Assembly: GCF_001984175.1 (NCBI RefSeq)
Contig: NZ_MTQP01000069.1
Coordinates: forward strand, 310,001 to 374,000
Origin: Saccharothrix sp. ALI-22-I
Lineage (GTDB): Bacteria; Actinomycetota; Actinomycetes; Mycobacteriales; Pseudonocardiaceae
DNA: 64,000 nucleotides
Reading direction: 5' to 3'
Numbering within the stretch: the stretch's first letter is position 1; each line of letters starts with the position of its first letter. A program made the translations under genes and the position numbers. Of the stretch, positions 35,897-63,290 are shown in pieces. The notes beneath the pieces were generated by a model, which was given only the letters and a program-made list of their open reading frames with translations, ran no database searches and was not told where the DNA came from.

Positions 35897-35925
35897 CCCA
35901 CCCTCCCCTGAACGCACAACTCGCC

Positions 35926-36160
35926 CATTCCCAACGTTGGACACGCCCGTTCTGAACGTTGGACACGCGCGTTCCCAACGTTGGACACGCGCGTTCTGAA
36001 CGTTGGACACGCGCGAGAGTCGAACGTTCAGGTACCCCGAATTCAACGCTCAGGACAGGCTGGCGGTGCGGAGGCGGGGGGCTCGCGTGTTCTGAGCGTT
36101 GAGCTCAGGGGTCCTGAGCGTTCGACTCTCGCGACTTGGGGGTTCGACTCTCGGGGTCTT
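35926..36160. repeat. 22-nt modular intergenic repeat array, locus 1
   Basis: Four direct units with exact 22-nt period start at 35926, 35948, 35970 and 35992; the common part is (TG/CC)AACGTTGGACACGC. They are followed by inverted and diverged modules (GAGAGTCGAACGTTCAGG, TGAGCGTTGAGCTC, TGAGCGTTCGACTCTC) to about 36160. The block around 36012-36057 recurs at locus 3. No spacer-like unique sequence is present. Confidence 0.85.
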
Positions 36161-36216: not shown

Positions 36217-36348
36217 ATGGTTCAGCCTCAACCGCCTCAGCCGCGGCCTGTGCCGGTTCCGGATCCGGTGCCCAAGCCGCCGCCTGAGCCTTCGCCTGGT
36301 ACTGAGCCGCCGATTCCGCCTACGCCGGAGCCGCCTACGCCTACGTGA
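36217..36348 (+). CDS. 43-residue proline-rich peptide
   Basis: A short frame from ATG 36217 to TGA 36348 with GGGAGG 6 nt upstream, a strong RBS. About 45 percent of residues are Pro, in PxP-type runs with Glu, Val and Thr (PQPPQPRPVPVPDPVP, PPTPEPPTPT). There is no signal peptide or membrane segment. It lies between the repeat array and the Rieske gene. Function unknown. The good RBS and regular composition support translation, but simple-sequence origin is possible. Confidence 0.5.
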   Translation: MVQPQPPQPRPVPVPDPVPKPPPEPSPGTEPPIPPTPEPPTPT

Positions 36349-56986: not shown

Positions 56987-57060
56987 GCGCGTGTCCAACA
57001 CTCAGAACACGCGTGTCCAACGTCCAGAACACCCGAATTGAACGCTCAGAACGCGAACGA
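56987..57060. repeat. 22-nt modular intergenic repeat, locus 2
   Basis: Two 22-nt units, GTGTCCAACACTCAGAACAC and GTGTCCAACGTCCAGAACAC (each plus two bases), start at 56991 and 57013. A diverged third module, GAATTGAACGCTCAGAACGC, follows. This is the reverse orientation of the locus 1 units. Located between convergent genes. Confidence 0.8.
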
Positions 57061-63033: not shown

Positions 63034-63079
63034 CGCTCGACCGGCCTCGTGGGGTGGCCCAGTGCCGTCTCACGGGGAC

Positions 63080-63290
63080 CTGAAGGTTCGACTCTCGTGG
63101 TCTGAACGTTCAACTCGCCTGTTCTGAACGTTGGACACGCGCGTTCTGAACGTAGGACACGCGCGAGAGTCGAACGCTCAGGTAGGCCGAGTTCAACGCT
63201 CAGGTCAGGTCACGCGCGTCCTGAGTGTTGAACTCACGGGGACCTGAGTGTTCGACTCTCGCGGCCTGGGGGGTTCGACTCTCGGGTTAG
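63080..63290. repeat. 22-nt modular intergenic repeat array, locus 3
   Basis: Modules in both orientations fill the gap between the convergent snapalysin and MbtH genes. TTCTGAACGTTGGACACGCG at 63122 repeats at 63144 with one change. GAGAGTCGAACGCTCAGG at 63165 is the inverted module, and TGAGTGTTGAACTC and TGAGTGTTCGACTCTC follow. The block about 63164-63209 matches locus 1 (36012-36057) at all but a few positions. Confidence 0.85.

What the first reader, a model, noticed from the sequence alone, without database searches (positions are those of the whole stretch)
35926..36160. 22-nt modular repeat family in three intergenic loci (first locus)
Four direct units at an exact 22-nt period are followed by inverted modules. 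The same modules recur, in both orientations, at 56987-57060 and 63080-63290. All three sit at gene 3' ends. The core reads TGA(A/G)(C/T)GTT followed by GGACAC, GAACTC or CGACTC. There are no spacers, coding frames or transposase nearby. This looks like a lineage-specific intergenic element that may work as a terminator, mRNA stabiliser or protein-binding array.
Basis: seen in the sequence. Interest (0 to 1): 0.75.

Follow-up and report, generated by a model that had tools for sequence, protein, structure and literature searches.

The report
Repeat-built hairpins at gene ends
A family of 22-letter DNA repeats in an actinobacterial genome sits almost only just behind genes, in about half of cases as mirror-image arrays standing where other gene pairs have an ordinary transcription stop signal, so it probably serves as a modular stop signal; relatives carry their own versions.

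Summary
The 18-mer matches 517 places (<=3 mismatches) in the 10.3 Mb genome against 5 for the reversed control. A looser pattern is abundant in 14 of 25 genomes of the genus and 14 of 365 others of the family; the period is 22 or 21 nt.

Arrays have a cap module (SAAYTC) and body modules (GGACAC or CGACTC). About half face each other as inverted repeats (117 of 219 elements). They are enriched between convergent genes (41 of 71 intergenic elements; 76 of 355 gaps) and rare in divergent gaps (2 of 71).

In convergent gaps of the genus, 88 of 95 without an element have a strong ordinary hairpin; with two-armed elements 8 of 44 have one besides. At one orthologous gene end 14 of 14 carriers have a two-armed element; three non-carriers have a plain hairpin.

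Best reading: bidirectional terminator-like hairpins built from a spreading repeat, replacing ordinary terminators. Against a pure RNA reading: no G-U excess, about 10.5-bp spacing of facing caps in part of the data, many one-armed arrays. A DNA-binding factor is the main rival. Termination was not measured.

The parts
35908..35922 (+). cap-like module (CTGAACGCACAACTC), 11 nt behind the stop of the luciferase-like gene
35930..36010 (+). four body modules of type GGACAC at exact 22-nt steps (one-sided array)
36017..36053 (-). left arm: body module CGACTC and cap GAATTC, inverted
36092..36128 (+). right arm: cap GAGCTC and body CGACTC; 36018-36129 folds with the left arm into one long hairpin, -78.0 kcal/mol
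36133..36155 (+). decayed outer module (GGGGGTTCGACTCTCGG)
   Evidence: by eye
56991..57049 (-). one-sided array: two GGACAC modules and cap CAATTC, 34 nt behind the stop of an alcohol-dehydrogenase-like gene
63080..63160 (+). four direct modules (CGACTC, CAACTC, GGACAC, GGACAC), 46 nt behind the stop of an M7-peptidase-like gene
63167..63203 (-). left arm: body CGACTC and cap GAACTC, inverted
63221..63258 (+). right arm: cap GAACTC and body CGACTC; 63168-63260 folds as one hairpin, -58.9 kcal/mol
63266..63287 (+). decayed outer module next to a predicted convergent gene end
   Evidence: by eye

Best explanation
The two-armed elements are bidirectional, terminator-like 3'-end structures built from one interspersed repeat family. 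A 22-bp unit (21 bp in some genera) is repeated in tandem, starting with a cap module. Two arrays in opposite orientation make an inverted repeat whose transcript folds, on either strand, into a hairpin as strong as an ordinary terminator. In the carrier species such elements occupy gene ends, above all between convergent genes, where related species have a plain hairpin. One-armed arrays would be half-elements, often next to an ordinary hairpin. Shown here: placement, architecture, lack of ordinary hairpins beside two-armed elements, retention at orthologous gene ends, predicted pairing. Inferred: that transcription ends there, that one-armed arrays are half-elements, and that the family spreads by copying. 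In G005 the FadJ site holds a single inverted pair of units with a 3-nt loop, an ordinary-looking hairpin, which suggests a continuum from simple hairpin to multi-unit array.
For: Placement: 41 convergent, 28 tandem, 2 divergent of 71 intergenic elements in G000, against 76, 174 and 105 of 355 gaps >=80 nt, element-bearing gaps included. In tandem gaps of the genus the element lies nearer the upstream stop in 61 of 69. Replacement: convergent gaps of the genus without element have a hairpin <=-15 kcal/mol in 88 of 95; with two-armed elements, outside the modules, 8 of 44; in G030+G045 9 of 9 against 1 of 8. A first version gave 93 of 101 against 8 of 44 (3 of 28 in, 3 of 10 out, 2 of 6 mosaic). 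Inner one-unit hairpins average -30.4 kcal/mol (G000, n=35), close to the ordinary hairpins (median -29.2, n=101). Orthologues: FadJ-like gene end, 14 of 14 carriers two-armed and without another hairpin; non-carriers G018, G007, G012 a plain hairpin of -37 to -44 in a 51-82 nt gap. RNase D-like gene end: modules in 14 of 14 carriers, a hairpin of -25 to -38 in 11 of 11 non-carriers. Pairing: cap-in arms with two units fold better than arms swapped between loci (G000 -63.4 against -57.8, 0 of 60 swaps as low; G030+G045 -81.2 against -56.8, 0 of 60). FadJ orthologue arms form more standard pairs than arms swapped between species (0.796 against 0.716, none of 5000; 13 of 14 rows). Module types match between facing arms.
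Against: One-armed arrays are 102 of 219 elements (29 of 74 in G000), and only 15 of 29 convergent ones in the genus have another hairpin. In tandem elements, transitions between arms give G-U and A-C equally (101 to 98); a finely selected single-stranded RNA would favour G-U. Letters of facing caps are no more alike within a locus than between loci in G000 (12.66 against 12.55 of 15) and less alike in G005 and G009. Body-to-body 'out' junctions fold worse than swapped when pooled: mosaics worse (40 of 40 swaps as low), pure ones only as well as swapped (13 of 40). In G110+G087 two-armed convergent gaps usually keep another hairpin (7 of 8), though decayed units may have escaped masking. Masking leaves little sequence in which another hairpin could be found. 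Arm matching could also come from copying between arms. No run of T follows the window's arms (by eye). No RNA data.
Confidence: 0.48

Rival explanations
1. The arrays are DNA-binding sites: an unidentified protein binds each 21/22-bp unit on nearly one face of the helix and oligomerises. The bound array blocks polymerase or sets a chromosome or supercoiling boundary at convergent gene ends; pairing is a by-product.
For: Period of about two helical turns in all sampled genomes (22 in the genus, 21 in G030/G045/G110/G087). Distances between facing caps cluster near multiples of 10.5 bp: R 0.70 over 51 distinct centres of the genus and G030/G045; with the 30-34 class removed R 0.51, n=26, p about 0.001. 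Core letters are conserved across loci, and variant spectra shift by species. No G-U bias. One-armed arrays (102 of 219) are natural here.
Against: No candidate protein was found, and none was searched for beyond the REP transposase. Two-armed elements lack ordinary hairpins and cap-in arms pair better than swapped, which binding does not need. No 10.5-bp clustering in G110+G087 (n=15, p 0.17) nor for body-to-body junctions (12 distinct centres, p 0.81). Distances were deduplicated but may share descent.
Confidence: 0.25
2. Selfish or neutral interspersed repeats (REP/BIME-like) tolerated only at gene 3' ends, without a host function.
For: Patchy occurrence over the family, mosaics, one-armed arrays, decayed outer modules, stop codons lying inside modules (10 counted in the 74 G000 elements), species-shifted variants.
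Against: Ordinary hairpins are missing where two-armed elements sit. FadJ and RNase D gene ends carry modules in 14 of 14 carriers, more stable than expected of free insertion. REP-type transposase (PF01797) in 5 of 25 genus genomes, 3 of them among the 14 carriers.
Confidence: 0.2
3. A recognition sequence for DNA transfer (like DUS/USS) whose inverted pairs are also used as terminators.
For: The same combination of species dialects and inverted pairs in terminators is described for DUS (PMC3630211, passages) and USS (PMC1852404, passages).
Against: Fewer copies than the usual 1,000 or more, nearly none inside genes (2 of 74); no evidence of uptake.
Confidence: 0.03

Closest known systems
REP / BIME elements (GTAG and CGTC REPs)
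   Same: Interspersed, extragenic, mostly between convergent and unidirectional genes, units in opposite orientation, proposed RNA and supercoiling roles (PMC3733652 and PMC1525189, passages seen).
   Different: The unit is not itself a tagged palindrome but an asymmetric 21/22-nt tandem module with a cap; no RAYT link; stands where ordinary terminators are missing.
DUS/USS-containing terminators of Neisseriaceae and Pasteurellaceae
   Same: Short conserved repeat used in inverted pairs as terminator hairpins, with species dialects (PMC1852404, PMC3630211, passages seen).
   Different: Tandem multi-unit arms, lower copy number, almost only at 3' ends, no known uptake role, actinobacterial.
Ordinary intrinsic terminators of high-GC actinobacteria
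   Same: Hairpin of about -30 kcal/mol between convergent gene ends; G005 has a single inverted pair of units at the FadJ site.
   Different: Sequence shared over an estimated 110-123 loci and built of modules.
Iteron-like direct-repeat protein-binding arrays (recalled)
   Same: About two-helical-turn direct repeats of an asymmetric site.
   Different: Dispersed at gene ends in both orientations, no known binder.

Membership tests
REP/BIME | extragenic, at gene 3' ends and between convergent genes | tested here: met
REP/BIME | each unit a 20-40 bp palindrome with GTAG or CGTC tag | tested here: not met
   units are asymmetric direct modules, consensus CTGAACGTTGGACAC; tags and size as in PMC3733652 (abstract and passages)
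REP/BIME | association with a RAYT (Y1_Tnp) transposase | tested here: not met
   PF01797 in 5 of 25 genus genomes: 3 of 14 carriers, 2 of 11 non-carriers
DUS/USS | inverted pairs forming terminator-like hairpins | tested here: met
   for the two-armed half of the elements:
DUS/USS | around 1,000 or more copies, also inside genes | tested here: not met
   517 matches; 2 of 74 elements inside predicted genes
DUS/USS | promotes uptake of DNA | not testable with these tools
   needs transformation assays
intrinsic terminator | strong hairpin just behind the stop codon | tested here: met
   two-armed elements only:
intrinsic terminator | T-rich tail after the hairpin | not tested
   by eye none follows the window arms; not computed
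intrinsic terminator | transcription ends there | not testable with these tools
   no RNA data
CRISPR-like array | unique spacers between repeats | tested here: not met
   units are contiguous at 22 or 21 nt
known RNA family | match to an Rfam model | tested here: not met
   0 matches over the window at gathering score
protein-binding repeat array | helical phasing of sites | tested here: inconclusive
   10.5-bp clustering of facing caps in genus+G030/G045, not in G110+G087 nor at body-to-body junctions

The most novel reading that the evidence does not exclude
The units are read in two ways at once: as DNA by a sequence-specific factor (phased 21/22-bp sites, species dialects, one-armed arrays included) and as a hairpin in RNA. 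They would form a factor-dependent, modular bidirectional terminator that has taken over a fraction of gene ends in scattered lineages of one bacterial family.
Probability: 0.2. Interest if true: 0.82.

Novelty: new variant of a known kind. Interest (0 to 1): 0.6.

Why it matters
If true, a spreading repeat has become a regular part of gene ends, taking the place of ordinary terminators at part of an estimated 110-123 loci. Array length, orientation and letters vary naturally over 28 genomes with many copies, which makes it testable how terminators are born, copied and replaced, and whether high-GC actinobacteria use sequence-specific terminators without a T tail.

Tried and rejected
Mobility by a REP-type transposase: PF01797 does not follow copy number. 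Occurrence on plasmids or phages (the 211-nt locus 3) or viral contigs (one exact 21-mer): no match; the tools warn that near records may be left out. Known RNA family: none in the window at gathering score. The single exact hit in a collection of other genomes (an Opitutaceae MAG) is no more than chance would give for an 18-mer in 257 billion bases (my estimate) and was dropped. Pure RNA hairpin under fine selection: predicted G-U excess not found. Letter-by-letter homogenisation of arms: not seen in G000 caps. Strong concerted evolution: variant spectra shift between species, but mean core identity within a genome (11.5 in G000) is barely above that between G000 and seven others (10.2-11.2), so only a shift of dialect is claimed. 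Integron attC resemblance of GTTGGAC was considered from memory and dropped, because the GTTCGAC and GTAGGAC variants do not fit. RNase III dicing at 22 nt was considered (one literature search, listing only) and not pursued. Prior description: searches and 64 of an open-licence library showed no paper on this family in the listings (a 14-letter stretch of the unit, found 0 papers); subscription journals and preprints are not in that library. No tool named the organism, so no genus name is given.

Known weaknesses: genes were called by my own codon-model script, not a published caller. G000 stretches were mostly chosen around pattern matches, as were the stretches of other genomes, so element counts are not a random sample; four stretches of 20 kb taken without regard to hits (L066-L069) held no element. 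In some searches some orthologous loci were read on the wrong strand; redid them. In one search three one-armed RNase D carriers (G004, G005, G015) were left out beforehand, and of the 11 rows given four dropped out (three without a junction, one truncated), as did one of 14 FadJ rows (G005, truncated); the automatic junction is probably off register in G017 and G019. In one search the sign '-' in the module column can mean no module or one stray match, and gaps over 700 nt were not scored.

Full report
What is there. The unit in this genome is about TTCTGAACGTTGGACACGCGCG, 22 nt, repeated without spacers. Over 61 stretches of the own genome (the window and 60 fetched stretches, 866 kb, mostly chosen around pattern matches) 74 elements were found, with 394 same-strand steps of exactly 22 nt against 5 of 21 or 23. 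There is a syntax, read from the printed loci: an array typically starts with a cap module (CAACTC, GAACTC or GAATTC in place of GGACAC) and continues with body modules of type GGACAC or CGACTC. Of the 74 elements 29 are one-armed, 23 have arrays facing cap to cap ('in'), 10 body to body ('out'), and 12 are mosaics with both; over all sampled genomes 102 of 219 are one-armed.

How common. Calibrated on the fetched stretches this is about 110-123 elements genome-wide. With a looser 15-nt pattern, 14 of 25 genomes of the genus have 58 to 449 matches and the other 11 have 9 or fewer. Among 365 other genomes of the family, 14 in seven genera have 18 or more (the pattern read backwards gives 3 or fewer per genome). 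The period is 22 nt in the genus and 21 nt in G030, G045, G110 and G087.

Where it sits. In the own genome 41 of 71 intergenic elements lie between convergent genes, 28 in tandem gaps and 2 in divergent gaps (2 more are inside predicted genes, 1 at a stretch end); gaps of 80 nt or more, element-bearing ones included, divide 76, 174 and 105 (binomial p 3e-11 for convergent and 1e-8 for divergent). Over all sampled genomes it is 116 convergent, 93 tandem and 4 divergent of 213, against 193, 469 and 311 of 973 gaps. In tandem gaps of the genus 61 of 69 elements lie nearer the upstream stop. In some loci the stop codon itself lies inside a module (10 counted in G000).

What it replaces. After masking modules, 88 of 95 convergent gaps of the genus without an element hold a strong hairpin (<=-15 kcal/mol), 15 of 29 with a one-armed element, and 8 of 44 with a two-armed element; the median distances from element to the two stops are only 5 and 17 nt in the last group. 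A first version with slightly other limits gave 93 of 101, 15 of 27 and 8 of 44. In G030+G045 it is 9 of 9 without element, 0 of 3 one-armed, 1 of 8 two-armed. In G110+G087 there is no such replacement (26 of 27, 5 of 7, 7 of 8), although decayed units may have escaped the mask. In tandem gaps of the genus it is 322 of 414 without element, 16 of 33 one-armed and 11 of 36 two-armed (Fisher p values for the genus and G030+G045). The inner one-unit hairpin of 'in' elements averages -30.4 kcal/mol in G000, like the ordinary hairpins (median -29.2). The window's own two-armed parts fold at -78.0 (36018-36129) and -58.9 (63168-63260).

Orthologous gene ends. Behind a FadJ-like gene, 14 of 14 carriers of the genus have modules in both orientations and no other hairpin. 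Among the 11 non-carriers, three with a close convergent neighbour (G018, G007, G012) have a plain hairpin of -37 to -44 kcal/mol in a gap of 51-82 nt; the others have other neighbours, long gaps or no usable gap. Behind an RNase D-like gene 14 of 14 carriers have at least two modules; of the 13 whose gap could be scored, 11 have no other hairpin, G006 has one of -14.6 and G020 one of -19.7. All 11 non-carriers have a hairpin of -25 to -38 there, in gaps of 36 to 615 nt. In G004, G005 and G015 the RNase D array is one-armed, with an ordinary hairpin next to it (by eye; it lies beyond the gap as called). Behind a thiolase gene only G000 and G005 have arrays, and both have a convergent neighbour there; the 12 other carriers have a tandem neighbour and no array. 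In G005 the FadJ element is a single inverted pair with a 3-nt loop, an ordinary-looking hairpin made of the unit.

Is it a hairpin? Arms of 'in' elements with two units fold better than arms swapped between loci (G000 -63.4 against -57.8; pooled genus -62.6 against -55.7; G030+G045 -81.2 against -56.8, n=7; no swap of 60 as low in each). With one unit the gain is small (G000 11 of 60 swaps as low, pooled genus 2 of 60). At the FadJ site, arms within a species form more standard pairs than arms swapped between species (0.796 against 0.716; none of 5000; 13 of 14 rows), with double changes at many pairs; at the RNase D site the gain is weak (0.873 against 0.840, p 0.022, 7 of 11 rows given). 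Module types match between facing arms in G000 (cap 0.53 against 0.30, second unit 0.79 against 0.44, third 1.00 against 0.69). 'Out' junctions as a whole fold worse than swapped. Split up, neighbouring arms in mosaics are of unlike type (12 of 15 A against B) and pair worse than swapped, while pure 'out' elements pair as swapped (13 of 40 as low).

Results against a pure RNA reading. Nearly half of the elements are one-armed. In tandem elements, where one strand should matter, G-U and A-C differences between arms are equal (101 to 98). Cap letters are not matched within a locus in G000 and are less alike than swapped in G005 and G009. Facing caps lie at distances that cluster near multiples of 10.5 bp in the genus and G030/G045 (51 distinct centres, R 0.70; without the 30-34 class R 0.51, n=26, p about 0.001), which speaks for DNA geometry, but not in G110+G087 (n=15, p 0.17) and not at body-to-body junctions (12 distinct centres, p 0.81). 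Shared descent of centres weakens these p values.

What it is like. REP/BIME repeats share the placement and mosaics, but their tagged palindromic unit and RAYT link are not met here (PMC3733652 and PMC1525189, passages). DUS and USS repeats are the nearest functional precedent: inverted pairs used as terminators, with species dialects (PMC1852404, PMC3630211, passages). Here too the variant spectrum shifts by species: GTTGGACAC is 263 of 532 modules in G000, GTAGGACAC 64 of 181 in G005, GTACGACTC 22 of 59 in G009, though overall identity within a genome is only slightly above that between genomes. No Rfam family matches in the window, and open-literature searches listed no description.

Verdict. 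The finding is real and structured. The two-armed half is most likely a terminator-like family of a new modular build; what the one-armed arrays do is open. That transcription ends there has not been shown by any data I had.

Noticed in passing
36217-36348 (+): A 43-codon proline-rich open frame (MVQPQPPQPRPVPVPDPV...) behind a purine-rich stretch, between locus 1 and the Rieske/DUF5914 gene; read by eye.
   Followed up: no
own genome G000, C52:16101-16466 and C51:107701-108051: Two open Y1_Tnp (IS200/REP-type) transposase frames in the own genome; over the genus such frames do not follow the copy number of the repeat. Their neighbourhood was not examined.
   Followed up: partly
about 63037-63085: A further predicted hairpin (stem about 14 bp) lies between the M7-peptidase-like gene and the start of locus 3.
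   Followed up: no
L025, L011, L026, L023, L054 and others: The TGA stop codon of a gene is the CTGA of the first module, as if the element supplied the stop.
   Followed up: partly
G110 loci L259-L278: A distinct 21-nt dialect with GTGGGGTTC modules (96 of 413), mixed with many divergent copies.
   Followed up: no
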